A model generated the notes under the pieces. That model did not search any database and was not told the origin of the DNA. It was given only the letters and a program-made list of their open reading frames with translations. The position numbers and the translations under genes were made by a program. 64,000 nucleotides of DNA from Aurantiochytrium sp. KH105 (taxonomy: Eukaryota > Sar > Bigyra > Thraustochytrida > Thraustochytriidae), in assembly GCA_003116975.1 (NCBI GenBank), contig BGKB01000017.1, positions 891,569-955,568 on the forward strand. The letters are read 5' to 3'. Below are positions 28,522 through 63,342 of this stretch, in pieces; the first letter of the stretch is position 1; each line of letters begins with the position of its first letter.

Positions 28522-29479
28522 TGAACGAACGAACGTCAGGCCCCGTCGATGCGCAGTTTGATCTGCTTGCAGTTGTTGCTGGCGGGCTTGCAAGGTGTTA
28601 TAGGCAGCGTCGCAGTGTCACAGGAACGCGTCACAGGAATGTCCCGAGAAGGGCATGTGGCTGGCAAGGCAGGCAGGCGAGGCAGGCAGGCAGGCAGAGC
28701 AAGGGACCCAGCCCTTGGCAGCTTGACGGCGGTTATTCGTCGATGACGAACGCGATGTCGAGTCAGATTTTAGATAACTAGCACGACCAACCAAGCACCG
28801 CTTCGTTGATACGAAGCGTCATCAAATTACTATCATATGATTTTCTAAGCCCCTTCGCAGTACTACTTTTTTTTCGAGTCGCCCAATAGGCTTGACTCCC
28901 AGCTTGCTCGCGCTTACCTGCACTCGCCTGACGAACCGCACGTTGCGATGCCCTCAACCACTCGTTCGCCGCAGTGGCCCTGGGACCGGAGACCCCTGGT
29001 CGCTGTCAAGCATACTCGGATTCGATTTGAGGGGCTGCCGGCCGTTGGCATGGACCATGACGAGTCCGGCGCGTCGATCGCCGCTCCCCTTCACGAGTGA
29101 ACCCACAACGCCTTGCGACGTTTCATTCCCCAAGATCGGCCATCTTCCATTCCACGGAGGCACGGACCCGTCCCCTCTTCCGCGCCCACTTTCCAGAGCC
29201 TTTGCTCTAGATCAACATCTGCCAGCCGATTCCGCCGCCGCCACTGCCAGGCCACGGCTGCTGCCTGCGCTGCGGCTAGCTAGCTGCCGAGGCTCGTCGC
29301 CTCGCACTCGCTTCGCAAATCGTCGGCTTTGGCGAGGATCGCGGCCCGCGTCGCTGTCGCGTTGACGACGAGGAAGTGGAGGAGGAGGAGAGAAGAGAGG
29401 GGAGAGCCAGCGAAGAGAGACGCGGCCCTCAACTCGCCCGTCGGTCGCGCCTGGCTTCTCGCGAGACTGACCGCCTTAC

Positions 29480-29520
29480 TTTGCTTGCTTGCTTGCTTGC
29501 TTGCTTGCTGGCTGGCTGGC
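29480..29520. repeat. CTTG/CTGG tetranucleotide microsatellite
   Basis: About seven CTTG units followed by three GGCT units in the upstream region of the ABC transporter. Confidence 0.9.
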
Positions 29521-29900
29521 GCGGGAGAGCGGGCGCGAGCGAAGAGTGGATGAATGAGCGGATGAATAGATGGATGGGTCGATGGATCGATCGATGAATT
29601 GAGTGCAGAGACGGCACTGCAGCCTGTTTGAACAGCACACACTTCTCTGGGACAAGCTCATGTTCCGGCTGGAAACACTTTGTGAAAAAGAGCTTTAAAG
29701 TCTCGAGAGATTCGCTCGGAATGTGAAACGGCCGCAGCTTTGGGTAGTAGTTTGAGGGGCTGCTGGCTGCAGGGCTGGCCGGCTGGCTAGCGCACCTGGC
29801 TGGATTTGAGCTTCGAAGTATGCCCGTGCGCAGTTGAGGGAAAGTGAGGGAGAGCAGAATGGGAAACATTGAGGAGGCGCGCGCGTTGGTCCAAGCACCT

Positions 29901-29903
<3 letters not shown>

Positions 29904-29940
<37 letters not shown>
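29904..29940. repeat. CAG trinucleotide microsatellite
   Basis: An uninterrupted (CAG)12 tract, probably in the 5' leader of the ABC transporter gene. Confidence 0.95.
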
Positions 29941-29943
<3 letters not shown>

Positions 29944-30035
29944 GAGGAGGATCAATCGTCCGCAACTCGAGACGCAAACCCAAAACTCGACACATAGTAG
30001 GCCCATACTACTACCCCGCTCTTGCGTGAACGAGA

Positions 30036-47366: not shown

Positions 47367-47464
47367 CTAAAAAATAAAAAAAATTAGAATTTAACGAGTC
47401 GCTGGTCACGTGCACTCTCCGTGCTTCCCTGCATTCCCCATCCCTCGCTCGCGTTCGCGCTGTG

Positions 47465-47504
47465 TAAGCAAGCAAGCAAGCAAGCAAGCGAAGCGAGCAA
47501 GCAA
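47465..47504. repeat. AGCA tetranucleotide microsatellite
   Basis: About six AGCA units and variants, roughly 30 bases upstream of the nuclease-kinase start codon. Confidence 0.9.
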
Positions 47505-47532
47505 AACCCTTTTCCCCGCCCGGACAGAGGCA

Positions 47533-49587
47533 ATGTCGCAGCGGGGGTCGATGTCGTCGGAGCGGCGGTCGAGGTCGCAGCGGCGGACAGGGCCGAGGTC
47601 GCGTATGTCGCGGCGATCGAGAGGTGCTAGCTCGGTTGCCTTCGGGGGTATTACTAGTAGTAGTGTGAGTGTCAGTCATGCAAGGCTGCGCAGATCACGC
47701 CCTTTGCGCGACCCCGCCTACCAGTTCAGGGACGAGTCTTTCTGGGCTGATCATGAGGAAGACCTGGTCAATCTCACCATGGACGAGTTCCTCTCGTTGA
47801 GCGATGCGGAGGTCGCTTGCGTCTACAATTACATCAGAAATCATGACGACGTTCGAAATTGTATGCAACGTGCTATTAATTATGCCATTTCAGATGCTGG
47901 CCGCGACTTCGTTGCACGAGAAAGTGCTGCCAAGGCAGGCCACATGGCGAGTCTCGCTCCTGAGATTGACCGCCTGTCTGCGATACTTCGAAATCCATCT
48001 GCAAGCGATAGTGACAGACAAAAGGCTGCTGATGAGCTCAATTCTTACACAAAGAAAATGACGAATGACGAGCTCACTGTCGTTGCGTCGTTAGCGCGGC
48101 CTCTTTTCACGGCATGTGATCAACCATCGGGTATTGCTGCGTCCTCGTCGTATGCTGACAATCAGCGCACATGGCTCCTCGACGCCGAGCCAGCACTCTG
48201 GGACCGCGGCGACTTCTCGGTGGACCTCTGCAAGGAGAATTTTGGAGGAATTTTCATGTCTGTCGGCACAATGCTTTCTGGGCGTTCGTTCCGCGCGGAG
48301 GCGAGAGAAGCTACATGCATGGCGCAGTTTGTGGCCAAGTCCGTTTCTGCACTCGAACATAACATTTTCCAGGACCTGTGCTCAGCTGACAACGTCTGTG
48401 TTGAGTTGGAGCAGCCCACCATCATCAACTCACGTCCGGACATGGTATGGTTTGCCAATGGCACTCCTATCCTAGTGCACGAGCACAAGGCCTCGCGCTC
48501 ATTCCCTCTGAGACCGGCCTCGGTTCCGGCGAACGCGGTTCGAGGGGAGCTTCTCTCTTATTACTACGAGACCTACGGCGAAGCCGTTCGCAAACCAGTC
48601 GCCCAAATCTACGGCTACATGGTCGTGATGGGTCTCAAGTACGGCGTGCTCAGCACGACAGAATTCACGTGGTTCTTGCGTCGCCCTGACGGCCCGAAGT
48701 CGCCGGCGCTTGAGATCACTGACGCTTTCTCCTGCACGGACAGCGGCGAGCACAGTGTCAACATGGCGTACACGCAGATGCTTCTCATGGCTATGCACGA
48801 CAATGATAGCGTTGGACAGTTCCCCAGAGACCACGACTCTGGACTCGGTCAGATTGTGTTGAACAAGTGGGCTGACTTTCTCGGCTCGCAACATGCGAGG
48901 GGTCGTGCCATGTGGATTTCGAGGTCCGATGGCGCAAATGAATGGGTGAAGAGCATCCACGCTGAGTATCAAGTAAGGCAGCGTGATGCGTCTTCGAAGA
49001 GACACGCGCCTGACGCCCAGACCAAGTGGGACAGCGGCACCGGTGTGCCATTGAGTGCTTCTGAATTTGGAAGCATTCTTCCACTGCCTTGGTCGGCAGA
49101 CTACACGGTGGTGTCGGAGTCGGAGCGTTTTTCGGTGAAGCGTCTCCGGCTTCAGAACGGCGTCTGCATCATAATGAAAACGCTCGTTGTTCGCGATTCC
49201 GAAGAGCCGCGCACGGACTCTTTATGTCGTGAGACTGAATCGTACACTGCGTTGGAGGCTCTTCAAGGCGTTGCTATCGTGCCCCTTGTGTACGGAGGTT
49301 TCGTCGGGCCCAAGTCGAACTGCTGGCAAGTCGTCGCCACGGTGGATCTCGGGACCAATTTGGAGTGCGTCGCTAAAGAGCGTCGCACGAATCTAAAAAA
49401 ACATGCACGCTGGTCGCTTCAGCAGTTGCACGTACGCGGATTCTTGCACGGGGATGTTGCGCTGCGGAACTTTGTCGTCCCGGACGATTCCAGTCGCGTG
49501 TTTCTCATTGATCTTGAATCTTCTCGGGCTTGCAATCAGCAGCAAGAATTTGACGCGGAACTGTCTCAATTCGACAGGCTCTTCTAA
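47533..49587 (+). CDS. PD-(D/E)xK nuclease-like / protein-kinase-like fusion (Crinkler-type effector architecture)
   Basis: Intact frame of 684 residues from the ATG at 47533; upstream the frame has only a GTG. The N-terminus (1-45) is Arg/Ser-rich and could direct the protein to nuclei. Residues about 60-280 are helical and unassigned. At about 300-375 RPDMVWF, then HEHKAS, then QIYGYM fit a PD-(D/E)xK nuclease core (Asp, Glu-x-Lys, Gln). From about 525 the sequence resembles a compact kinase fold: IMKTL (Lys), HGDVALRNF as catalytic loop and LIDLESS in place of DFG. Nuclease plus kinase-like fusions are known in the Crinkler/CRN-RHS class of eukaryotic effectors and conflict proteins. No Crinkler header (LxLFLAK) or signal peptide is visible, so a cell-internal role is possible. 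It lies between two repeat copies and next to a transposon. Confidence 0.65.
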   Translation: MSQRGSMSSERRSRSQRRTGPRSRMSRRSRGASSVAFGGITSSSVSVSHARLRRSRPLRDPAYQFRDESFWADHEEDLVNLTMDEFLSLSDAEVACVYNYIRNHDDVRNCMQRAINYAISDAGRDFVARESAAKAGHMASLAPEIDRLSAILRNPSASDSDRQKAADELNSYTKKMTNDELTVVASLARPLFTACDQPSGIAASSSYADNQRTWLLDAEPALWDRGDFSVDLCKENFGGIFMSVGTMLSGRSFRAEAREATCMAQFVAKSVSALEHNIFQDLCSADNVCVELEQPTIINSRPDMVWFANGTPILVHEHKASRSFPLRPASVPANAVRGELLSYYYETYGEAVRKPVAQIYGYMVVMGLKYGVLSTTEFTWFLRRPDGPKSPALEITDAFSCTDSGEHSVNMAYTQMLLMAMHDNDSVGQFPRDHDSGLGQIVLNKWADFLGSQHARGRAMWISRSDGANEWVKSIHAEYQVRQRDASSKRHAPDAQTKWDSGTGVPLSASEFGSILPLPWSADYTVVSESERFSVKRLRLQNGVCIIMKTLVVRDSEEPRTDSLCRETESYTALEALQGVAIVPLVYGGFVGPKSNCWQVVATVDLGTNLECVAKERRTNLKKHARWSLQQLHVRGFLHGDVALRNFVVPDDSSRVFLIDLESSRACNQQQEFDAELSQFDRLF

Positions 49588-50913: not shown

Positions 50914-52473
50914 TTAGGCAATGACACAGCAGCCCCCAGCAGGCGCACCTCCTCCGTTGCGAATGGCAGGAAGGTTGAGAGCGCCGGAACCAACGAGCTT
51001 GAGGTTGGCCTTGTAGGCCGGACCATCGACAGCATCCATGGGGTACGAAGAGGAAGCGGTGAGGGGAAGGTCAACGCCGACGTTGCTGAGCACCTCGACC
51101 CAGTTGCGGACCTCGGAGATGTGAATGTTCTCCATGAGGTACGTGACCTGGACCTCGGGGTCCTCCTGGTGCTTGCCCGGGTACGTGGAGAGGGCAGCAA
51201 TCCATCCCTCCTTTTCGTTAAAGGCGAGGCTGTCGACCTCGCTGAAAGCAGCGTGGTGCTCCGTTTGGCGACCGTCCGGGTCGTAGAGGTAGAGGCCCTT
51301 GCTTCCAACGACGAGAAGAAGAGGCACGCGCACGGCCTTGGCGTTGAAGGCAATGACACGNCCGATGCAGGTGGAAAACTGCTCCGTATGGATGGTCTCG
51401 TTGCAGCGAGCGACAATGTGGTCGAACAGGCGACCGTAGAGCGACTTGGCGAGCGAGTCGCGCGCAAAGGCAGCCTTCTCGGCGCTGAGACTGGTACGCA
51501 CGCTCTCGGTGCCGGACTTTACGGTGCGGTGGGTAAGCGCCGTGCTGAGGTCACGTTCGTTGACGCCGAGGAGGCTGGCGGCCTCGGAGACGGCGCGCGC
51601 GTTGACAATGTCAGAAGCGTCACGGCCTCGGGACTCGAATTCGACGTTGCCGAGGTGGAGAATCGCGGCGAGAATGGCAAAGATGGCGTTCTGCTCGTCA
51701 CCGCCCATGCCAATAAAGTCCATGGCGCGGGTGGTCTCGCTAAAGTCCCTGGCATCGTCGATGCTACGCACCTTGGCGGCGCCGGGGTCGCCAAAAAAGT
51801 TATAATCGCCCGGGCTGCCGGAGAGCTTGAAGTCGCCGCGCCTCCGGCTGTCGGAGAGCAGCTGGTAAAAGATGTGAAAGTTGCGCTCGCCGTCCTGCTG
51901 ATGGGTGACGCGGGTCTTTTCCAGCAAATAAGTGGAGATGGAACCTCCACTGGGATCGCCATAGAGAAAGTTGATGGCAAAGTACTTGCCGAAGCGCGAA
52001 GAGTTGTCGTTGCGGCGGGTCTTGGCGTTACCAAAGGCCTCCAGCAGAGGGTTGGTCTGGAGGAGCTCGTCCTTGATGTGCTGGACCTGCTTGCTCTTGC
52101 TTGCCATGGCCGCCACGTACTCCATGACGGTCTTGCTGGCCTCGGTCTTGCCGGCGCCGGACTCGCCGGTGATGATGACACATTCGTTGGAAGTGTTGAG
52201 CATCATGGACCGGTACGCCATCTCTGCGATGCCGTAGACGTGGGGAGGTCTCTCGTAGAGCTTTTTCGAGACGTAGGAGCGAATTTTGCTCGATCCATAG
52301 AGTCCGCTGATGAGACGGTAGGGGTTCACAACGAGGAGCACCTCGCCAATGTACGTGTAGATCTCATCGGCGCGGTGGCGCGCGGCCAGGGCCTCTACGA
52401 TCTCCTGCTCGCCCGACCCGTCGAGCAAGACCAAGTCGTTGACCACGCCGCTCTTTGCGCCGCGATAAGACAT
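50914..52473 (-). CDS. Class I myosin, middle missing at an assembly break, C-terminal CaaX box
   Basis: The assembled frame is 519 residues from the ATG at 52473. The N-terminal half is a myosin motor: VVNPYR, P-loop GESGAGKTE, switch I NDNSSRFGKY, and LYGRLFDHIVARCNE. It stops at STCI (residue 370), where myosins continue into switch II. A single N at 51361 follows, and then comes a class I tail-homology-1 domain (RVIAFNAKAVRVPLLLVVGSKGLYLYD). Switch II, the actin-binding part, the converter and the IQ neck, several hundred residues in all, are absent, so the N marks a collapsed gap or misjoin. TH1 binds acidic lipids. The C-terminus ends GGCCVIA, a CaaX box, suggesting prenylation. The motor would move or tether membranes on actin. 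The real protein should be near 1000 residues. Confidence 0.88.
   Translation of the reverse strand: MSYRGAKSGVVNDLVLLDGSGEQEIVEALAARHRADEIYTYIGEVLLVVNPYRLISGLYGSSKIRSYVSKKLYERPPHVYGIAEMAYRSMMLNTSNECVIITGESGAGKTEASKTVMEYVAAMASKSKQVQHIKDELLQTNPLLEAFGNAKTRRNDNSSRFGKYFAINFLYGDPSGGSISTYLLEKTRVTHQQDGERNFHIFYQLLSDSRRRGDFKLSGSPGDYNFFGDPGAAKVRSIDDARDFSETTRAMDFIGMGGDEQNAIFAILAAILHLGNVEFESRGRDASDIVNARAVSEAASLLGVNERDLSTALTHRTVKSGTESVRTSLSAEKAAFARDSLAKSLYGRLFDHIVARCNETIHTEQFSTCIXRVIAFNAKAVRVPLLLVVGSKGLYLYDPDGRQTEHHAAFSEVDSLAFNEKEGWIAALSTYPGKHQEDPEVQVTYLMENIHISEVRNWVEVLSNVGVDLPLTASSSYPMDAVDGPAYKANLKLVGSGALNLPAIRNGGGAPAGGCCVIA
51361..51361. other. Single N at a sequence break inside the myosin gene
   Basis: One ambiguous base exactly where motor-domain sequence jumps to TH1 sequence. 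It keeps the frame by chance or by consensus trimming. Confidence 0.9.
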
Positions 52474-54596
52474 GGCGCCAGTCTAGCGTTCGGTCTCCCT
52501 CGTACGTGTGCGCAAGTGCCGACGCGCGCTTGTGCAGACGTGCCTGCGCGGGCGACCGTACGCGCGCGTGGGCTCGTTCGAGGTCTGGCTGCCTGGCTGC
52601 CTGGCTGCCTGCGCGCCTTGGTGAGGCGCGGGTCTTCAGCTATCCCGCTCAAGCGAGCGAGCGAGGGAAGGAGGCGGCTTTGTCTTCCGCAAGCAGACTG
52701 GGCACGCACGCACGCACGAAAGCGGCGCGCGCCTCGTGTGCGCACAAGCTTGCTTGTGCGCGTGCCGCGCGTGCGGTCACTGTTAGTTTTTCTTTCTCGT
52801 TTACTTTCTCCTTTGCCGCGTCCCTCGCGGGGGCGGCCGTCGCTACGAGATCGTCGCGCCGGGGCGGGGCGGAGGTCTGCTCTCGCAGGCTGGGGCGGAG
52901 GGCGCTCGCTGCGCGCGGGCGGGCTTGATTGAGGTCCTGCCTGATCTCTCTCTCTCCGTGCGCGCGGGTTGGAGGTATGCTCGCACGCGCGTGCCGCCGG
53001 GGAAACCCCCGCCGCGGTGCAGGCCGACAGTCGCTTCGTACCCCCCTCTAGCAGGGACACAAACTCAGAGCACAGGGCGCGGATAGGGGTGGGCAGAGAG
53101 TCTGGCCCGCCTTCTCGGCCTGGATTTTTACGGCGCATAAGGGCTGCTGAGCGTGAACGTGATAAAGCAGAATGAGCGTGCTCTTGCTCGAGCTCGAGCT
53201 CGAGCTCGCTGTCATCATCACAAGCAACCCAATCGCCGCCAAGGAAGAAAGTCTGGACCTTGCTGATCACGTCGCCATCGTCGGCGTCTGCCGGACGCTG
53301 GGATCCTCGAAGCCCGGCCGCACCAGCAGCAGCACTGCAGCTGCGGCAGCCAGAAAGGCGCCGGAGCGGCGATTCATTCCCGTCGGGGTGGTCGGAGATC
53401 ACCTGCCGGTGCTGGAGCCCGCGGCTGCGGCAGCGGCTGCGGCCAGCGGCTGCCCCAAGCTAGCCGGAGGAGAGGTTAAATTTTGCGCGCACGCGGAGCA
53501 GACGAGGCTGCGCGGGATGTGCGGCCAGCCGCAGGGAGCGATCACAGGAGGCGCGGCGGGACCCCGCGCGGCGCGGCTCGAGGCGCCCGCGCGGCGGACG
53601 GTGCGCTGCGCCGGTCCGGGAGCAAAGGCGGGCGAGGCCGGCGGCGCGGAAGCCAGGCAGCAGGCTGGGAACGTGGAGGGGAGGAGGTCGGTCAAACGGT
53701 CGCATCGAGGGAGGCGACGCGGAAGCGACTCCGGCGACGAGGTGCGCGCGGGAGAGGAGGCGCCGAGAGGCCGACCACCGCATTGATTGATTTTGGAAAC
53801 CAAGGAATGTGGACTTCATGCCATGCGCGTCGTTGATTGTGGTCAAGAAGGAAGGGCCGGATGCATGCAGAATGCGTCTGGTGCAGCGTGTATTTCGCCT
53901 CGCTTCACGGGAAACTCTTCGAGGTCTCGTAGGTCAGAGCATAAGCGAAAGTCTCTATCTGCGAAGATCAAGCGCAACTATTGCGTCTTTTCACACATCC
54001 TGAGACATCCAGGTTCTTTCTCTGCCTGCGATGGAGTGCTTGGGAAAATGAAGCTGGACAAGTTCAGAAATGAGACCAACCGGGTGCAGAATTGAGAAAT
54101 ACAACGCTCTGCTCTCAGCCAACACCTTGAAAGGAACAGGAAAAGATTGGTGTGCTGCCCTTGTCAGCATCGCTCTTGAAGATTGCCGAGACATCTCGTC
54201 AGACGCGATCTCCAACTCCAACTCCATCCTACCTCGCTCCGTTTTCCGACAGTGTCTCAACAATCGGTTTGCTTTGCTTTGCGCTGCGCTGCGCTGCACT
54301 GCACTGCACTGCACTTCAGTAGAAGCGCTTGACGATACAACCACGAGCTTTACACCAATTATACTTTCAACAAGCGAAGTAAAACCGTTTGCTCCAATAA
54401 GATCCTGTGCCACCAGGGCCAATGACGATGATCGAAGCAAGCAAGCGAGCAAACCTTTTCCATCACAAGGCCTAGGCTGGCCTAGGATCTCGTCGAGGTT
54501 CGCCGTGCGAGCAGCGCGAGGTCGCGGGCCCGCCGCCGCCGAGGCGCCGAGGCCGCGAGGCTCGCGGCACCCGCGGGGCACCGAACGCGTGGTAGC
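52474..54596. other. Divergent intergenic region between myosin and the fucokinase-like gene
   Basis: The 2.1 kb have a CTGGCTGC-type repeat (52585-52611), a GAGCTC run (about 53185-53210), GC-rich stretches with Ala/Arg/Gly-rich open frames on both strands (for example an ATG frame at 53172-53786) and a TTTGC/GCACT microsatellite near 54270-54315. Long open frames here are low in complexity and mirror each other on both strands, so no gene is called. A small unrecognised gene cannot be excluded near 53787-54470, where composition is more balanced. Confidence 0.45.
54270..54315. repeat. TTTGC / GCGCT / GCACT pentanucleotide microsatellite
   Basis: Tandem five-base units that drift in sequence from TTTGC through GCGCT to GCACT. 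Confidence 0.85.
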
Positions 54597-56960
54597 ATGG
54601 GCGCGACAGATTCGCGCGAAGCTGCGGATAGCGCGGGCTCGGCCTCGGAGGCGGTGAGGTCGAGCACCTCGAGCGGGCACGGGTCGGCGAGGCGCGCGAC
54701 GTGGGCCTCGGAGCGCACGCTGAGCGCGTGGGACGCCATCTTTATCGTGGAGGAGCATAGTGCTCAACAGCACCTGGAAGAGGTGCAAAACGAGGACCAG
54801 AAGCACCACGAAGAGCAAAACAATGATCATCAACCTGCCGCAACCCTTGCAACGGCATGTCTTCAAGAACTGGCCCGCCGAAGATACACGTGCCACCTTG
54901 AGGTGGCTGCGCGTGGCACAAGCACGACGCAAGGACATGCTTTTAACGGAGGCTTGCGTGCTGCGACAAGGTGGCTTCGACAAACGAACGCAGATCGCGG
55001 CAGCGCGCGAATGAAACGCGTCCTGGTCCTGTCCGTGGAGGCCTCAAGGCCGTGGTCCTCAGCAATGAGCGCGCTACCGTTGATGCGTGCAGAGGCCGAC
55101 AAGAACGGTTCCGAAAGCGCTCACGCCGACTGCGAGGATATTGTCTCGGTTGCGCAGCTTCTCGTCGACGTCATCGGAAGCATGCAAGCTCGTCCGGGCC
55201 TCTGGCTGTGCCCGTGCGATGGCCTCATTCTTAGCAAACTTAACGTCAAGACACCAACCTCGCCAGATGCATTTGTGATTGTATCAAACGCACTGCGTCC
55301 ACAGGAAGCGCAACGACGATTTCGTGCGGCCTATGACCCAATCGACAAATCAGTCGAGTGTCTCATTACACCAGAGCAAGGACCGCGAGATGCCGGCAAT
55401 GGTGCCTGCCTCTTGTATTATATGAATTTCGAGCTCTGCGAGCAGATTGCCGGTCTCGCGGAAGATCATGGCATCGAAAGCGAACTTGACGTTGTGCAGG
55501 ACGTCTTTGAAGCCCTCACGAGCAATTGCACGGCCGACGGGTTCGCCTCGTCCGGCTCCAATCGCCTGTCGGCAGATGCTCGGCAGACGGTGTTTTCGGA
55601 GCTCCATGGGAAACGCAAGTTTCAGGTCGTTGTTGCAGACGACGAAGCAGCCGAGACTGTAGCTTTTTGGCCTCTCACGCCAGGGGATCTCCTGCAATTG
55701 CACACAGTCACGCCCCCGGACCTTCTTGACGCCCTCCAGGTCTATGGGTGCAAACAAGTCGCCGAGGGCGTCAAAGCCGTCGAAGCAGTCGCTGGCATGG
55801 CAGCGACACGTCAAGTTCGTGTGGACTCGGCCGCGTCGACAACTAGCGAAGCGTACGAGTCCGCAGCACTTCCCCAGAGCACAACGCGTCAGCGTGTGAG
55901 CTCCCGTTCCGGATCCGTACACGATGAAGCGCATGTTCGGGTAGAGGCTGGGGCAAGGGTGTTCAATAGCTTGCTCGTTGGCACCGGCACCGTGGACACG
56001 GGCAGTCTGGTTCTCGATTCCCGACTTTGCGGTCGTTGGCATGTGGGACCTGGGAGTCTTGTGGTTGGTTTACAACGAACCGCGTTACGACGCAATTTGC
56101 ACATTGGTGCCGGCATTTTCGTTCAAGAAATCGCTCTGCCCGACGCGAACGTTCTCGTGGTTTATGGAATTGCAGACAAGCTGGAGGCGCCTGTGTTTGC
56201 AGGAAGACCCATGGACGAGATCCTGCAGCAGCTACCTTTGGACGATGAGGCCTCGTTCTGGCGAACACGCGAGGCCGCAGAGACCCAGGCTCTTCAAGAC
56301 GCTCTTTTGTTTCCTGTTCGTGCTGCATCAAGGGACGAACTGCACCTTGCGCAATTTTACGTGCTGCACGTTCTCGCCCAGCGTCTCGTCCCCGTATCTC
56401 CTTTACTCCACTATCGCGCACGATCCGCCTGGCTTTCGTCACAAAGAGTATCACTTTGGCATGTTTTCTCCCACGGGGACACTGTCCAAAGCGTTGTAGA
56501 TGCTCGGCGTCTGGCTGCACGTATACAAGCCTTTCTCATCGTCGCGGCTCTCTTGGAGAATGGTCGTGTGGGCGTTGAGCGCGCCCTGCCTCGCGTCCAG
56601 GGTTTGCTGAGACAAGGGGATGATCTCGAGGCCCTCATGGATATTCTCGACGGTGTGGCCTCGAATTCGCGCACACGGCCAGGTGTAGCATCTGCAGCGC
56701 TTGAATGCATTGCTCTGGCGCTACGACAACGCCGCGCATTTGCGCTGGCTGCACAGGACAAGCGGACATCAGAACTATGTCAAGGGGCACACGAAGGCGC
56801 ATCAAGCCTTGCGGCCATCTTTGCGCCTACCCTTAATCGCATGTCATCCGCACGCTATGACGGTGTGCAACAAGCTGCACGTCTTCGCAAATCTTTGGCA
56901 GGCAGTGAGACGGATGAGGCGCTTGCTGCGCAATACGAAGCGCTCGCGCGGAAAACATGA
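54597..56960 (+). CDS. Fucokinase/fucose-1-P guanylyltransferase (FKP)-like protein lacking the GHMP kinase domain
   Basis: Protein of 787 residues from the ATG at 54597 (AGCATGG), starting MGATDS, a possible N-myristoylation site. The order of segments follows the N-terminal pyrophosphorylase half of plant FKP and animal fucokinase: WDAIFIVEEHSAQQ (about 45), the nucleotide-loop equivalent TTQGHAFNGGLRAA, RVLVLSVEASRPWSSAM, GLWLCPCDGL and a left-handed-helix-like part (about 461-502). Then come VLVVYGIADK, FAGRPMDEIL, LFPV and WLSSQRVSLWHVF. It stops after the helical linker, just where the GHMP fucokinase domain should begin. The G-loop (GSGAAT-like in homologues) and the GGxSxR motif are degraded, so catalysis is doubtful. 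A role in GDP-fucose salvage or a regulatory role are both open. Confidence 0.65.
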   Translation: MGATDSREAADSAGSASEAVRSSTSSGHGSARRATWASERTLSAWDAIFIVEEHSAQQHLEEVQNEDQKHHEEQNNDHQPAATLATACLQELARRRYTCHLEVAARGTSTTQGHAFNGGLRAATRWLRQTNADRGSARMKRVLVLSVEASRPWSSAMSALPLMRAEADKNGSESAHADCEDIVSVAQLLVDVIGSMQARPGLWLCPCDGLILSKLNVKTPTSPDAFVIVSNALRPQEAQRRFRAAYDPIDKSVECLITPEQGPRDAGNGACLLYYMNFELCEQIAGLAEDHGIESELDVVQDVFEALTSNCTADGFASSGSNRLSADARQTVFSELHGKRKFQVVVADDEAAETVAFWPLTPGDLLQLHTVTPPDLLDALQVYGCKQVAEGVKAVEAVAGMAATRQVRVDSAASTTSEAYESAALPQSTTRQRVSSRSGSVHDEAHVRVEAGARVFNSLLVGTGTVDTGSLVLDSRLCGRWHVGPGSLVVGLQRTALRRNLHIGAGIFVQEIALPDANVLVVYGIADKLEAPVFAGRPMDEILQQLPLDDEASFWRTREAAETQALQDALLFPVRAASRDELHLAQFYVLHVLAQRLVPVSPLLHYRARSAWLSSQRVSLWHVFSHGDTVQSVVDARRLAARIQAFLIVAALLENGRVGVERALPRVQGLLRQGDDLEALMDILDGVASNSRTRPGVASAALECIALALRQRRAFALAAQDKRTSELCQGAHEGASSLAAIFAPTLNRMSSARYDGVQQAARLRKSLAGSETDEALAAQYEALARKT

Positions 56961-57354
56961 CCGGGCACATTCTAAAAAGTGAACTTGCTTATTTTTAAAC
57001 CCGTGGATGGGTGAAAAGACCTCCACAACTTTTTGGAAAGTGCTGACGGTGATGATCTCGACATCACGTCTTGCTAAGGGGTTGGTTCTTGAGCGAGAGA
57101 ACATCGCTATCGTCGTGTGACGCATCGTCAACGGTGACCTCTACTTCTTCTTCTTCTTCTTCTCGTTTGTTGTTGTTGCTCCCAGATGAAGCGATGAGTT
57201 ACCTGCTGCTGCGCAGTGGGACTGTTAGGCGGCGGAAACGGGATAAAATCTTCCTCGCTCAGCTCGAGGTCCCAGGAAGGTAGCTTTTTGGTTATGGGGT
57301 ATCGGGATGAAACCTTGGCGTCTTTAGCGAAAGAAGATGTCTGCTCCGTCTCGC

Positions 57355-57516
57355 CCCCATGTTGCGCTCATATTATGCGTTGCGCTCACAATTTGCGTTG
57401 CGCTCATAATATGCGTTGCGCTCATAATTTGCGTTGCCGCTCACAATTTGCGTTGCGCCCACAATTTGCGTTGCGCTCGTAATTTGCGTTGCGCTCACGA
57501 TTTGCGTTGCGCAGGC
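57355..57516. repeat. 18-bp tandem repeat (GCGCTCACAATTTGCGTT)
   Basis: About nine imperfect copies of an 18-bp unit; the CA/TA and TT/AT positions vary from copy to copy. All three frames stay open for much of its length because 18 is a multiple of three. Confidence 0.9.
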
Positions 57517-57877
57517 AAGGCAAACAGTGGAGAATGTCGTCTTGCAGCCTGACAGAGAAACAAATGAAAACAAGCGCGACTGGGAGCACTTGCGCTTTCA
57601 GCTGTCTGCGTGCGGCGTGCGGCGCGCGGCGAATTTTGAAAGGTGAATTGTTGGCGTGTGTTTCGCGACTGCGCGCGTGCATTGTACAGTTCTCCATATC
57701 ATGGCTGCGGTGAATGGGCATCTCCTTTTCCACGTCAATTCCGACGTGTCCATTGCCTTACTAAGAGGGAAGCCAGAGTAAAGTATGCACGCACGAGAGC
57801 AGCTTGATAACAGAGGTCGTGGCGATAAGCAAAGACTGCCAAAATCTGTCAGCAGCGAGCCCGAGCTTCAAGCAGAT

Positions 57878-58168
57878 TAATCGACGATGCCCGCCACGAT
57901 GAGCTACCCATCACCTTGACACCAGGTGGTAAACTGCTATAGCATCCACGCACAAGCAGAGCCAAAGTGCACACCCAGTGTGCGAAACACCATGGGAACC
58001 GCACTCATTCCGCGTGCGATCCAAGATCGCACCCACTGCAATGATGCCGCCTTAACGAGGCCCCGCGTATCATTTCGTCAGTGAGCAATGCCGTCCTTGA
58101 CGAAGGCCCAGCGCATTGCCGGATAATGTCGCCTTGACGAAGGCCATCGTGGCGGGCATCGTCGATTA
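57878..58168. mobile_element. MITE-like 291-bp unit with perfect 24-bp inverted ends
   Basis: Bases 57878-57901 and 58145-58168 are perfect reverse complements (TAATCGACGATG... and its mirror). The outermost TA on each side can be read as a TA target-site duplication, as produced by Tc1/mariner-type transposons. The interior (243 bases) has no coding frame but contains three loose copies of a CCTTGACGAAGGCC-like motif (near 58047, 58095 and 58132), itself partly palindromic. Confidence 0.55.
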
Positions 58169-59151
58169 GCCCAGCACATTATTCCATCACCTTAAATGCA
58201 GCTTTTACACGAGCCCACGCATTTCATTTCACCATGCTTTTCACAGCATGAATCATAATCTAAGCTGCACGAAGCCACGCACACGCGCGCTCTCGTCCGC
58301 CAGCAGACCCGAATCACCCGAGCACTCGAACCCAGTGCGAGTTCCGAGTTAACCGCTACCAGGGTGGCCATTTGCAAGCGGGCTCTTCCTAATCGTTAGA
58401 CTCCCTTGCAACCAAGGCAAACAACTACAGTCTCCGAGTAGCTGCGTGAGACTCCAACTTCTTCCTCCCCATCGCGCTACGCGCGGAGGGGAGATTTCTT
58501 TTACGTTTATACGAATCATCTTTGTTGCCCTTTCTTTCAATCAGACTTTGCGTCAATAATCAGTAGAGAATTCGAGGCGCTCAGAGCAAGTTGGTCCTAT
58601 ATAGCCTCCGCGCGTCGTATCCAGATTTGTATTCTGAGTCACGATGCCGCGATATTTCTTGCGCGCCTCTTTCATGCCAGCCAAAACTTCTTTGAGGCCC
58701 CATTTCTGAAGAAAAGGAAGGAACACCGATTTGATGACGAAGCACACTTGACGATGACCACTCGAAAAGGTCGGTAATCGGAGGGTTTGAGTTGCTACTG
58801 GTGTCATTTAGGTAAGTGTCGGCAGTCTCGAGACAGTATCAGTTGGAAAAGTTTCTCATCAGCAAAGAGTGCTTGAGGTGCGCTCTCCTCGCAATTACAG
58901 TCATGCCCTCTCATCTCCCGAGCACAGACAAAGATTCGTGATTCCAACCACTTTCGAACTAATCGTAGCTTTATAAAAAGTCATTTTTTGGTTGTGTCGC
59001 GTGCAACAACTAAAGACCGATGAAAGAACATTAAAAAAAAAAGCAAGAGTTTATTTAGGAGATAATACTACTGCGTCACAGTAAGTGATCACAAGCATTT
59101 AAGGTCTGTCGCCCACGCAGGCATGGCACACGGTAGCGCAAAGCCGCACGA

Positions 59152-62100
59152 TTAGGTCCCAGGATCGAGTCCTTGAACATGCAAGATGTGTACCCTCCCG
59201 CTAATGTCGCCAAAAACGTAAACACGTCCCTGGCGAGCAGTGTCCCAGATTGCGTGCTCCGTCGTGAAGCCTATGCCTTCGCTAAGCTTCACATGTGTCC
59301 CGTTTTCAACGTTCACCAACGTCTTTGTTCCAGGTGTAGTCGATGCCTCCGCTTCATCCGCGTCCAGTGCTTCGCCCGTTCGAGCGTTCCAGTAACGAGT
59401 CCCATCCCCTGACTGTGATACAATGATGCAGCCATCGATCGCCACACTCAAGACGTAATCGGAGTGCCCCTTCAACACGTGTTGCTCCTCGCCCGACGTA
59501 GCGTTCCAGATGCGCACCGTCTTGTCATCGGACCCACTGACGATGATGTCGTCCTGTATCGCCACGCTCCTGACCCAACCAGAGTGCCCTTGCAATGCGT
59601 GCTGCTCCTCGCCCGACGTAGCGTTCCAGATGCGCACCGTTCCGTCATCGGACCCACTGACGATGATGTCGTCCTGTATCGCCACGCTCCTGACCCAACC
59701 AGAGTGCCCTTGCAATGCGTGCTGCTCCTCGCCCGACGTAGCGTTCCAGATGCGCACCGTATTATCCTCGGACCCACTAACGATGGTGTCGCCCTCAATC
59801 GCCACGCTCAAGACCGGACCAGAGTGCCCCTTCAACACGTGCTGCTCCTCGCTCGATGTAGCGTTCCAGATGCGCACCGTGTTGTCATCGGACCCACTGA
59901 CGATGGTGTCGCCCTGTATCGCCACGCTCCTGACCCTTCCAGAGTGCCCCTTCAACACGTGCTGCTCCTCGCCCGACGTAGCGTTCCAGATGCGCGCTGT
60001 CTTGTCATTGGACCCACTGACGATGGTGTCGTCCTGTATCGACACGCTGTTCACCGCAAACGAGTGCCCCTTCAGTACGTACTGCTCCTCGCCCGACGTA
60101 GCGTTCCAGATGCGCACCGTTCCATCATCGGACCCGCTGACGATGGTGATGCCCTGTATCGCCACGCTTGTGACTCGACCAGAGTGCCCCTTCAACCCGC
60201 GCTGCTCCTCGCCCGACGTAGCGTTCCAGCTGCGCACCGTTCCGTCATCGGACCCACTGACGACGGTGTCGCCCTGTATCGCCACGCTCCTGACCCAATG
60301 AGAGTCTCCCTCCAACACGTGCTGCTCCTCGCCCGACGTAGCGTTCCAGATGCGCACCGTCTTGTCATCAGATCCAGACACGATGGTGTCGCCCTGTATC
60401 GCCACGCTGTTGATCCGACCAGAGTGCCCCTTCAACACGTGCTGCTCCTCGCCCGACGTAGCGTTCCAGATGCGCACCGTCTTGTCAACGGACCCACTGA
60501 CGATGGTGTCGCCCTGTGTCGCCACGCTCAAGACCCAATCAGAGTGGCCCCTTAACACGTGCTGCTCCTCGCCCGACGTAGCGTTCCAAATGCGCACCGT
60601 CTTGTCCGAGGACCCACTAACGATGGTGTCGCCCTGTATTGCCACGCTCCAGACCAAACTAGAGTGCCCCTCCAACACGTGCAGCAAGGGGTCGCGGGGA
60701 TGAGCAAGGGTGACGCGAGTGGGCTCCAGCCATGGCTGATCAGGTGTTTGTAGACTGAGCGCCAAAAGATCTTTCGACTCGTGACCAAGACGCGCAAGAA
60801 CTTGCGACGCAAGTTCGTTGGGATCGTAGCTGAGGGCATGAACTGCTTTGCTCAAGAAACGGGGCGTATCACTTTCGGGCGCAAAGTAGATCCCGAGTTC
60901 GACGCAGTCGCGAATGAGGTTTTCGATTGTGGCGCGCCTTCGCGCTTCATCGTCACCGACAGAGATGGCGCTCTGTACCCATGCAAAGTCATTCAGGAGC
61001 TCATAAGCCTCAGCGTGCTCGCCGCTCTTGACGAGGTGAAAGATGGCGTTACGGAGCGAAAAATCGTCCCGCGAGCTGCTGCAGTAGTCGGCCAATTGTT
61101 TATGCCCGTCTCTTTTCTTCACGAAGAGCTTTTTTCCGCTCTGCTTCTTATCTGAGAGCCAGTCTGCCATGCGCTTATGAATGAGTGCCACACGACCATC
61201 GCCGTCTCGGTATAAGAGATTGCTCGCGTCGTCGACCATATCATCCATATCATCTTGATCTAATTGCAGAATTGCGCTTAGTTGCTCGACACTCAGCGGT
61301 TCACGAGCAGCTATGATTGGCGCCAAGAGCATCTTGTACGTCTTCTCCCCGCCAACTTTTTCTTGCAGGCGCTCAAAGTACTCTTTGAACATGCCGCCAA
61401 GCCCATTGGGAATGGCGTCTTTGTGCGAGATGTCCTGCAAGGTCAGCACTCCACCTTGTTTCTCCTCGTGCATCCGATTCAGGGTCTCGGGAAGGAAGCT
61501 CGCCCAGAGAAAGAGACCTTCGGATCGTTCGGAAAGAATCTTGGCGCAAGAAGCAATGTCCTTTTGCTCCACGGTATCTTTCATGTCGCACAGCAAATGC
61601 TCGATGTGCTTTTCGATGTCGCAAAAGTTCTGTTCGTCCTTGAGCTCCAACACTTTCGAATCAAGGCTGTAGTTGGTGATGCCGCGCTGGATCTCGCCTT
61701 CGGGACGTGTGCTTACGACCAAGCTGAGCCATGAGGGCATCACATCCTTCCACGTACGAATGACCTTTCGCAAAACATCGTCGCTCTTGCTGCACTCATC
61801 GAGAGCGTCGAGCACGACCACTCGTCGCATCTGGTCTGGGCCGAGCTTGGTTGCAGGATTGACGAGAATGGTCTGGAACATGTCGGCCAGAGGCTTGTCG
61901 CGGATACCGCCGAAGCTCATGGAGTCCAGCGCATCGGCAAAGCCAGGCACTCTTAGGCAGAGCTGCCATGCAATGCTCATGAGAGCCTCTTTCGGCGCAG
62001 CGGTCGTGACTTGATCATGCCGGAAGAAATGGTACGCTGCCACCGAGATGGGCTGGCGCTCTTTTTGACTGCGACGCCACAGGCCACGTACACGTGACGA

Positions 62101-63342
62101 CTTTTGGCGCGGCTCGGCGCGTTCATCAGCCTTGCTCTTTTCGACATCTTCGTCAGTTTTTAGAGCGCCTCCGCGATGGCAAAGCTCGGCCATGATGACG
62201 CTCTTGCCGATGCCGCCGTCGCCAATGAGAATGAAGACAGCACTTTGTTTCTTGTTGTACCAGCCGCAAAGCTCATCGATGATCCAGCTCCGCGTGCCAA
62301 AGGTAAAGTTTTCCGCCTTGCCCTTAGCCCATGCCTCTGAGCTGCAGGGGCGCAACCGAGGACGAATGCGGCACATGAGGGGTGTCAGATCTGATGAGGC
62401 CTCTGGGAAATCGATGCGTGACCATATTGTGCCGACAAGACGCGTTATGGCTTCATCCGACAGTGTCGATAGATCATCGGGTGACTGTTTATTGAGTGCG
62501 AGCTGGAACTGTCCCTTCCATTGGGTCACGGCATCGGCCATGGTCGGTTCCAGCGCAGCGACCACAATCCGATCTGCGCGGTTCTCGCGGGCGTGCAGAA
62601 ATTCTCGGACGCATTTCTCGCGGCGGTCTCCTCGATTCACCTTGTCCATGTACCCCTCGGTTGCGAGGACGAGGAAGACCTTGGATAATGCAATACCTTG
62701 TGACACGCTCTCGTCGGCGCTTCGCAGCCCCTGGTTTTCGTCAAGCCATATTTTCAAATCATGTTGGTCTTTGAGGCGCTTCGCGATCTCTTTTGCCATG
62801 TCGCGTGCCTTTCGGTCGTGAGAAATGTATGCGTCAAAGATCTTGCGAAGGTACTTGCCGCTTCCCTTGAGTTGAACTTGGTCGAGAAGATGAGAAATGA
62901 TGGCTGTTTCAGGCTCGCAAAAGTCGAATTGTACCTCGTCGGCCATACGATAGCTGATTGCGCTTTGCCACGACTCTTGCAGGATCATGGCCTTGTCCAC
63001 GACGACTGGAACGAGCGCATGGGGTAGCTTGCGAGCTACGACCTCGACGAGTGGTTTGTTCCACTGCAATGCTGCGCTCACTAGTATCGCGGCCACCTTG
63101 GCCACCTTGGCCTCCTTTTTTGCCTCTGCGACGTGGCTCGCGGTGCGCACCGGCAAGCTGAGGTGAGGTTGGAGCTTTTCGATCAAGTCTTTGGCTGCTT
63201 GCTCATCTGCCGGGTCGTAGACCACGAGAAGGGCAACGTCCGCAGGCAGCACGCTTTTGATCGGCTCGTCTTCCGCGTCGGTGGTGGCTTCGTCGTCGCG
63301 TCCTCTCTTGAAGAGCGTGAGCAAGCGCGTCGCCCAACTCAT
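59152..63342 (-). CDS. TIR-NACHT-WD40 STAND protein (NLR-like immune receptor candidate)
   Basis: Protein of 1396 residues from the ATG at 63342 (MSWATRLL). The frame is open further upstream only through a CTTT microsatellite and low-complexity sequence. Residues about 32-150 look like a degenerate TIR-like alpha/beta unit (DVALLVVYDPADEQAAKDLI). About 170-310 is a clearer TIR domain (FDAYISHDRKARDMAKEIA, IWLDENQGL, SKVFLVLATEGYM, REFLHA). A NACHT-type NTPase follows, with Walker A GDGGIGKS (about 374) and Walker B VVVLDALDE (about 508), and then a helical region (about 600-880). The C-terminus has eleven 40-residue WD units plus a degenerate end. In such STAND proteins the WD array senses a ligand, NACHT oligomerises on ATP and TIR signals or consumes NAD. 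Ligand and output are unknown. The units are nearly identical, which suggests ongoing recombination. Confidence 0.88.
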   Translation of the reverse strand: MSWATRLLTLFKRGRDDEATTDAEDEPIKSVLPADVALLVVYDPADEQAAKDLIEKLQPHLSLPVRTASHVAEAKKEAKVAKVAAILVSAALQWNKPLVEVVARKLPHALVPVVVDKAMILQESWQSAISYRMADEVQFDFCEPETAIISHLLDQVQLKGSGKYLRKIFDAYISHDRKARDMAKEIAKRLKDQHDLKIWLDENQGLRSADESVSQGIALSKVFLVLATEGYMDKVNRGDRREKCVREFLHARENRADRIVVAALEPTMADAVTQWKGQFQLALNKQSPDDLSTLSDEAITRLVGTIWSRIDFPEASSDLTPLMCRIRPRLRPCSSEAWAKGKAENFTFGTRSWIIDELCGWYNKKQSAVFILIGDGGIGKSVIMAELCHRGGALKTDEDVEKSKADERAEPRQKSSRVRGLWRRSQKERQPISVAAYHFFRHDQVTTAAPKEALMSIAWQLCLRVPGFADALDSMSFGGIRDKPLADMFQTILVNPATKLGPDQMRRVVVLDALDECSKSDDVLRKVIRTWKDVMPSWLSLVVSTRPEGEIQRGITNYSLDSKVLELKDEQNFCDIEKHIEHLLCDMKDTVEQKDIASCAKILSERSEGLFLWASFLPETLNRMHEEKQGGVLTLQDISHKDAIPNGLGGMFKEYFERLQEKVGGEKTYKMLLAPIIAAREPLSVEQLSAILQLDQDDMDDMVDDASNLLYRDGDGRVALIHKRMADWLSDKKQSGKKLFVKKRDGHKQLADYCSSSRDDFSLRNAIFHLVKSGEHAEAYELLNDFAWVQSAISVGDDEARRRATIENLIRDCVELGIYFAPESDTPRFLSKAVHALSYDPNELASQVLARLGHESKDLLALSLQTPDQPWLEPTRVTLAHPRDPLLHVLEGHSSLVWSVAIQGDTIVSGSSDKTVRIWNATSGEEQHVLRGHSDWVLSVATQGDTIVSGSVDKTVRIWNATSGEEQHVLKGHSGRINSVAIQGDTIVSGSDDKTVRIWNATSGEEQHVLEGDSHWVRSVAIQGDTVVSGSDDGTVRSWNATSGEEQRGLKGHSGRVTSVAIQGITIVSGSDDGTVRIWNATSGEEQYVLKGHSFAVNSVSIQDDTIVSGSNDKTARIWNATSGEEQHVLKGHSGRVRSVAIQGDTIVSGSDDNTVRIWNATSSEEQHVLKGHSGPVLSVAIEGDTIVSGSEDNTVRIWNATSGEEQHALQGHSGWVRSVAIQDDIIVSGSDDGTVRIWNATSGEEQHALQGHSGWVRSVAIQDDIIVSGSDDKTVRIWNATSGEEQHVLKGHSDYVLSVAIDGCIIVSQSGDGTRYWNARTGEALDADEAEASTTPGTKTLVNVENGTHVKLSEGIGFTTEHAIWDTARQGRVYVFGDISGRVHILHVQGLDPGT
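59362..60675 (-). repeat. Eleven tandem 120-bp WD40-encoding units without indels
   Basis: Units begin at 60675 and recur every 120 bases without any insertion or deletion down to 59475. The last unit (59475-59362) is more diverged. The shared core is SGS-x-D-x-TVRIWNATSGEEQ. Units 9 and 10 (59596-59715, 59476-59595) differ at only a few bases. Differences among units concentrate after GHS and around SGSxDxT. Confidence 0.95.

What the first reader, a model, noticed from the sequence alone, without database searches (positions are those of the whole stretch)
59152..63342. Protist TIR-NACHT-WD40 receptor candidate
One intact gene joins a TIR domain (plus a second, degenerate TIR-like unit before it), a NACHT NTPase with intact Walker A and B, and a WD40 array. 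TIR-NACHT-WD40 assemblies are known from bacteria, fungi and some animals as inflammasome-like or incompatibility receptors. A stramenopile member with two TIR-like units would be a little-described innate-immunity system. The helix after the TIR strand carries an acidic residue (REFLHA) where NADase TIRs place their catalytic Glu.
Basis: partly seen in the sequence, partly recalled or inferred. Interest (0 to 1): 0.9.

Follow-up and report, generated by a model that had tools for sequence, protein, structure and literature searches.

The report
Hypervariable TIR immune-receptor family in protist
A single-celled marine thraustochytrid-like protist carries dozens of genes for intracellular receptors that join an NAD-enzyme-like TIR domain to an ATP switch and a fast-changing propeller of near-identical repeats, much like self/non-self genes of moulds, so it probably has a large inherited sensing system.

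Summary
The larger finding: the gene is one of at least 51 loci in this 76-Mb assembly; the only named close relatives found belong to the thraustochytrid Hondaea. In 302 repeats, variation concentrates at positions 5, 6, 8, 22 and 24; the rest is homogenised. Positions 6/8 and 22/24 correspond to the codon pairs under diversifying selection in Podospora HET-D/HET-E (7/9, 25/27). The partner contig, 92-95% identical alongside, carries a very different member (TIR 53% identical) at the corresponding place. Most likely a diversifying TIR-NLR repertoire for pathogen or self/non-self recognition. The architecture class is known; its scale, TIR executor and fungal-style hypervariability in a stramenopile appear new in the searches that ran. 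Function untested.

The parts
59152..63342 (-). intronless gene, 1396 aa: unit 1 - TIR - STAND NTPase - winged helix - arm - WD40 propeller
62863..63243 (-). N-terminal alpha/beta unit (residues 34-160), possible degenerate TIR; duplicated in 3 of 41 family ORFs
62413..62841 (-). TIR domain, residues 168-310
62602..62604 (-). codon of Glu247, the putative NADase glutamate in motif C-V-R-E-F
   Evidence: E in 38 of 39 family sequences with a residue there, D in 1; D also in Hondaea P0002; aligned with the Glu of HKE in C. elegans TIR-1
61711..62298 (-). NPHP3_N / NACHT-type STAND NTPase, residues 349-544
62200..62223 (-). Walker A GDGGIGKS (374-381)
   Evidence: Lys380 in 40 of 40 family sequences with a residue there
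61795..61821 (-). Walker B VVVLDALDE (508-516)
   Evidence: D512, D515 and E516 each in 40 of 40
61033..61332 (-). TANC1-type winged helix, residues 671-770
   Evidence: HTH_TANC1 36.7 bits, cut-off 27
59473..60672 (-). ten near-identical 40-aa WD40 repeats (residues 891-1290); mean pairwise DNA identity 86%; hypervariable repeat positions 5, 6, 8, 22, 24
59155..59472 (-). degenerate last blade and C-terminal tail (residues 1291-1396)
54001..57347 (.). flank that matches the partner contig C36:15168-18532 at 95%; C36 carries a divergent family member (L035) at the corresponding place

Best explanation
This is one member of a large, fast-diversifying family of TIR-NACHT-WD40 STAND receptors (NLR analogues) in a thraustochytrid-like stramenopile. 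Shown here: the domain order, conservation of the TIR Glu and NTPase motifs, at least 51 loci, purifying selection on the N-terminal machinery, homogenised WD40 repeats with hypervariability at a few fixed positions, and putative haplotypes that differ at this locus. Inferred: the WD40 propeller binds variable foreign or non-self proteins through its top face; binding opens the NTPase switch; the protein oligomerises through the NACHT/winged-helix core; the clustered TIRs hydrolyse NAD+ and kill or arrest the cell, or make a signalling nucleotide. New specificities arise by repeat exchange within and between genes plus selection on the face residues.
Against: No expression, ligand, NADase or cell-death data. 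Within the hypervariable codons themselves pN/pS is only 1.04 (95% CI 0.94-1.17) over 30 genes and 1.16 over 26 younger ones, so the case for positive selection rests on comparison with neighbouring codons, and even synonymous change is raised in the hypervariable codons. In four older arrays (L048, L049, L039, L042) the ratio to neighbouring pS is 0.8-1.0, and the pair L048/L049 is conserved at the hypervariable codons (pN 0.015), so not every member is diversifying. Nearest neighbours of repeats lie in the same gene in only 12.1%. Glu247 is Asp in one paralogue and in Hondaea P0002. Seven of 41 loci read are broken or cut off. Immunity and allorecognition cannot be told apart from sequence.
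Confidence: 0.68

Rival explanations
1. Same receptor family, but for allorecognition (self/non-self at cell fusion or mating), as with Podospora HET-D/HET-E, rather than anti-pathogen defence.
For: The same repeat sites vary as in HET-D/HET-E; strong difference between putative haplotypes at this site. A source named one Hondaea relative 'Vegetative incompatibility protein HET-E-1', probably a label from similarity only.
Against: Dozens of members would be many for allorecognition alone, and no fusion biology of these cells is known to me (both recalled, not tested).
Confidence: 0.25
2. The TIR is a non-enzymatic adaptor: it recruits other TIR proteins of the cell, and signalling does not need NAD+ cleavage by this protein.
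For: 122 of 150 scored TIR_2 matches in the genome lie outside this family, so partners are plentiful.
Against: Glu247 is kept in 38 of 39 sequences, the best fold matches are SARM1 structures, and the Glu aligns with that of TIR-1.
Confidence: 0.2
3. Selfish or neutral gene amplification with little function; repeat diversity reflects unequal crossing-over and relaxed constraint.
For: 15 of 33 loci on contigs of 100 kb or more lie within 15 kb of a contig end against 3.1 expected; mosaic dS along the gene; broken or cut copies 7 of 41.
Against: Low dN/dS in TIR and NTPase; relaxed constraint would not confine change to five codons and spare the codons between them. Contig ends may also be assembly breaks at repeats.
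Confidence: 0.1
4. Assembly artefact: collapsed or mis-joined repeat arrays create apparent diversity.
For: Some family loci contain N runs or stop at contig ends.
Against: Hondaea records show nearly the same positions; random sequencing error would not target whole codons at fixed repeat positions.
Confidence: 0.04

Closest known systems
Fungal NWD/HNWD family (Podospora anserina HET-D, HET-E, HET-R)
   Same: NACHT-type STAND plus highly conserved WD40 repeats, repeat exchange inside and between genes, and variation at the same paired sites (7/9 and 25/27 there, 6/8 and 22/24 here; paired by motif, each pair flanking a conserved residue) (passages of PMC1805685, and of PMC4986451).
   Different: N-terminal HET domain in part of that family (itself remotely TIR-like according to PMC4986451), canonical TIR_2 plus an extra alpha/beta unit here; 10 genes in Podospora against at least 51 loci in this assembly, which appears to hold both haplotypes; lineage is a stramenopile.
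SARM1 / TIR-1 NADases
   Different: SARM1 has ARM and SAM regulation, no NTPase switch (recalled).
Plant TIR-NB-LRR receptors
   Different: NB-ARC and LRR there, NPHP3_N/NACHT and WD40 here.
TRADD-N proteins with WD40 propellers (eLife 2021, PMC8195603, passages)
   Same: Lineage expansions of 13-129 proteins per species whose WD40 propellers vary in repeat number and sequence, read there as diversification by recombination.
   Different: DED and TRADD-N domains there; no TIR or STAND NTPase named for them in the passage seen.
Metagenomic TIR-NACHT-WD40 protein P0012
   Same: TIR_2, NPHP3_N and WD40 in one chain; 23% identity over 71% of the query; a CLDEI Glu aligned with CVREF.
   Different: Source organism unknown; its WD40 blades differ from each other by eye.
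Ectocarpus NB-ARC-TPR candidates (Zambounis 2012, recalled; the paper is not held)
   Same: Stramenopile STAND proteins with a diversifying repeat sensor (recalled).
   Different: NB-ARC and TPR with exon shuffling there (recalled).

Membership tests
TIR domain family | sequence profile match over the curated cut-off | tested here: met
   TIR_2 39.9 bits, cut-off 28; 28 of 28 members scanned match at E 0.01 or better
TIR domain family | TIR fold | tested here: met
NADase TIRs (SARM1/TIR-1, plant TIRs) | catalytic Glu in the helix after the second-last core strand | tested here: met
   Glu247 aligned with the Glu of HKE in TIR-1 chain 8p2m_A; that this Glu is the catalytic one is recalled
NADase TIRs (SARM1/TIR-1, plant TIRs) | NAD+ cleavage activity | not testable with these tools
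   needs an enzyme assay
STAND/NACHT NTPases | Walker A and B plus winged helix | tested here: met
   NPHP3_N 62.6 bits, HTH_TANC1 36.7 bits, both over cut-off; PF05729 NACHT itself 25.1, under 26.7; motifs
NLR-type receptors (functional sense) | ligand-triggered oligomerisation and cell death or immune output | not testable with these tools
   no ligand or phenotype data
Fungal NWD/HNWD-type hypervariable receptors | multigene NACHT-WD40 family with highly conserved repeats evolving in concert | tested here: met
   51 loci; non-hypervariable DNA distance within this gene's array 0.094; older arrays left out, mean 0.170 within against 0.185 between genes; same-gene nearest neighbour 12.1% against 3.0% permuted, maximum 6.0% of 300
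Fungal NWD/HNWD-type hypervariable receptors | variation at face pairs 7/9 and 25/27 | tested here: met
   positions 6, 8, 22, 24 (and 5); correspondence by motif, not by superposed structure
Fungal NWD/HNWD-type hypervariable receptors | positive selection at those codons by site models | tested here: inconclusive
   only pairwise counts made: pN/pS 1.04 inside the codons, pN above neighbouring pS
Fungal HET-domain NLRs (HET-D, HET-E) | N-terminal HET domain | tested here: not met
   Pfam at E 10 or better lists TIR_2 and two weak others, no HET, in residues 1-315
TIR-like identity of unit 1 | detectable homology to TIR | tested here: inconclusive

The most novel reading that the evidence does not exclude
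A single-celled stramenopile runs an adaptive-like, germline-encoded recognition repertoire: dozens of TIR-executing STAND receptors whose WD40 sensor codons are changed at fixed positions, possibly by a targeted conversion or cassette-exchange mechanism between loci near chromosome ends and not by selection on random mutation alone, so that haplotypes and perhaps individual cell lineages carry different specificities.
Probability: 0.2. Interest if true: 0.93.

Novelty: new variant of a known kind. Interest (0 to 1): 0.8.

Why it matters
A January 2026 review (PMC12911909, passages) says that protist antiviral defences have not been thoroughly characterised and proposes the thraustochytrid Aurantiochytrium limacinum and its mirusviruses as a model. 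Here is a concrete candidate gene family in what looks like a relative. Dyrka 2014 (PMC4986451, passages) linked fungal NLRs to multicellularity because yeasts lack them; a large NLR-like repertoire in a single-celled group would argue against a general rule. The match of variable sites to fungal incompatibility genes, in another supergroup and on a canonical TIR, makes convergent versus shared origin of hypervariable WD40 sensors testable.

Tried and rejected
Unit 1 as a second TIR: tested by Pfam on 28 members (28 of the 37 unit-1 stretches I had, window plus 36 loci), profile-profile comparison, solved-structure profile search (5 matches, best E 0.41, none a TIR), the family TIR profile on the unit-1 zone (best E 0.92) and a separate model (mean pLDDT 56.3) with fold searches (Foldseek: none at E 0.001 or better): an alpha/beta fold, TIR neither shown nor excluded.

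Telomere proximity: no TTAGGG x4 in the assembly, so a subtelomeric place is not shown; enrichment at contig ends (45 of 51 loci with known contig length) may be assembly breaks.

Prokaryote relatives: a genome-contig scan with A2 found 50 pattern matches and no relative; it used only two short peptides, so it is weak evidence.

Adenine-directed mutagenesis of the diversity-generating-retroelement type: the hypervariable codons show no adenine-only pattern; not pursued further.

Nearest-neighbour clustering of repeats by gene is above chance but modest (12.1% against 3.0%), which fits exchange between genes but does not prove it. Choosing close repeat pairs biases the reference pS downward; I therefore quote per-gene figures (13 genes chosen by me, mostly for low array divergence, of 36 with repeats) together with the unselected figures.

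Rows dropped: of 41 family loci with letters in hand (window gene and L010-L049), 5 gave no repeat at my threshold (L015, L023, L040, L041, L046), leaving 36 genes and 302 repeats; the dN/dS count used 30 genes with at least 4 repeats, L036 and L047 left out. Repeats with N, or with under 18 of 40 consensus matches, were not counted, so strongly diverged blades are missed; many arrays are also cut by the locus end, so repeat numbers are lower bounds. Ten of the 51 loci were never read.

Thraustochytrid with NACHT and WD40: 0 papers. Passages only were seen of PMC12258536 ('wd40', 'nacht', 'tir domain' 0 times), PMC4986451, PMC1805685, PMC5658179, PMC8195603 and PMC12911909. My statement that the system appears undescribed rests on these only.
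Full report
Observation. The reported frame is real: 59152-63342 on the minus strand, 1396 residues without a stop. Pfam places TIR_2 at residues 172-266 (E 6.8e-10, over cut-off), an NPHP3_N STAND NTPase at 349-544, a TANC1-type winged helix at 671-770 and WD40 from about 891 on. The specific NACHT model PF05729 stays just under its cut-off (25.1 against 26.7 bits), so 'NPHP3_N/NACHT-type' is the more exact name. The window's end is the end of its contig C17, and the gene starts about 660 bases from it.

A gene family. Searching the window's own 76-Mb assembly with residues 1-885 gave 53 matches, which I count as 51 loci after merging two split matches on C123 and C51. Only 51 of 149 first-look candidates were scored, so this is a lower bound; the assembly appears to hold two haplotypes, so the number per haploid genome is smaller. 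Of the 80 NPHP3_N matches in the genome, 51 lie in these loci, and two more (on C359 and C27) have a TIR_2 match close by on the same strand. Of the 41 loci whose letters I held, 34 have an uninterrupted frame from unit 1/TIR to the edge of the WD40 region. In nine pairs of members dN/dS is 0.09-0.28 in the TIR (8 of 9; WIN-L021 has saturated dS), 0.16-0.38 in the NTPase and 0.15-0.46 in residues 561-885 (9 of 9 each). dS differs strongly along the gene within one pair (WIN-L010: 0.024 for residues 561-885, 0.418 in the NTPase), a sign of exchange between copies.

Who else has it. In the protein database the only named close relatives are proteins of Hondaea fermentalgiana, a thraustochytrid (57-84% identity). 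Further out come an unnamed metagenomic TIR_2-NPHP3_N fragment (P0022, 37% over 52%), P0012 (TIR_2-NPHP3_N-WD40, 23% over 71%), five unnamed ENA proteins and fungal STAND proteins. In both searches only the candidates sharing most words (7993 and 7997) were scored, so absence elsewhere is not shown.

The sensor. The window gene has ten 40-residue repeats with 79-95% pairwise DNA identity (mean 86%) and a degenerate eleventh. Over the family I counted 302 repeats in 36 genes. Entropy is 3.78, 3.64, 3.57, 2.75 and 2.52 bits at positions 6, 22, 8, 5 and 24; the next is 2.08. The residues between the pairs, Val7 and Asp23, are nearly fixed, at DNA level too (196 near-consensus repeats). In Hondaea (58 repeats of 7 proteins) the top positions are 6, 22, 8, 32, 24 and 5, and the whole ranking correlates at rho 0.94. 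Paoletti 2007 reports codons 7, 9, 25 and 27 of the Podospora repeat under positive selection, each pair flanking a conserved residue, on the propeller's interaction face (passages of PMC1805685). By their place in the WD40 motif these correspond to 6, 8, 22 and 24 here; the mapping is mine, from the motif, not from a superposed structure.

Selection. Within the five hypervariable codons pN/pS is 1.04 (95% CI 0.94-1.17) over 30 genes, against 0.47 elsewhere. Against the pS of the other codons, hypervariable pN is 1.6 times higher over all 30 genes (0.565 against 0.353) and 2.1 times over 26 younger ones (0.564 against 0.263); 2.6 times in this gene and 3.1-10.5 times in eight arrays picked for low divergence, but 0.8-1.0 in four older arrays. 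Two allele-like pairs contrast: L025/L026 (93% identical before the WD40) differ at hypervariable codons by pN 0.353, while L048/L049 (94%) are conserved at 0.015. The family therefore contains both fast and stable members. These are pairwise counts, not site models, and recombination is not controlled.

Haplotypes. The flank beside the gene (window 54001-57347) matches C36:15168-18532 at 95%, a longer stretch (52473-57347) at 92%, and a stretch further in (27001-30000) at 92%. C36 carries a family member in the corresponding place and orientation (C36:9520-11967, L035), yet the two are 53% identical in the TIR, 71% in the NTPase and 88% in residues 561-885, and L035 is 95% identical to a copy on another contig (L021). 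L035 has a frame break near its start and 97 N. The two putative haplotypes thus hold different members at one site.

Best reading. Domain order, retained catalytic-like residues, family size, and confinement of change to a few sensor positions fit an NLR-like receptor system. The step from ligand to NAD+ loss and cell death is inferred from the TIR and STAND families. Pathogen sensing and allorecognition remain open.

Comparison and novelty. It works like fungal HET-D/HET-E for the sensor and SARM1/TIR-1 for the executor. It is a member of the TIR and STAND families (tested), but not a HET-domain protein. I call it a new variant of a known kind. The library searches that were answered showed no description in thraustochytrids; later searches failed, so this is limited.

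Noticed in passing
whole assembly G000: 150 TIR_2 matches listed (150 of 258 candidates scored), 122 of them outside the 51 family loci: a very large TIR repertoire in frames of very different length.
   Followed up: partly
L054 (C16:578600-581200): C-terminal TIR_2 (63.4 bits) behind a weak COR-B match (19.4 bits, under the 27 cut-off): possibly a ROCO-TIR class.
   Followed up: partly
L055 (C84:295000-298000): Another C-terminal TIR_2 (56.1 bits); the upstream part was not read.
   Followed up: partly
L001 and L003 (L002 and L004 look like near copies and were not scanned): Other STAND proteins in this genome: DUF4062-NACHT with HTH_NWD1 (L001), and the same with TPR (L003).
   Followed up: partly
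window 57420-58560: Two interspersed repeats; the stretch 57878-58560 has about 34 further matching pieces in the assembly.
   Followed up: no
window 27001-30000 and 52473-57347 against C36: The putative haplotypes differ by 5-8% at DNA level in the stretches compared, high for alleles.
   Followed up: no
window 47410-49587 (+): 725-aa frame that by eye may join a nuclease-like and a kinase-like part; not searched.
   Followed up: no
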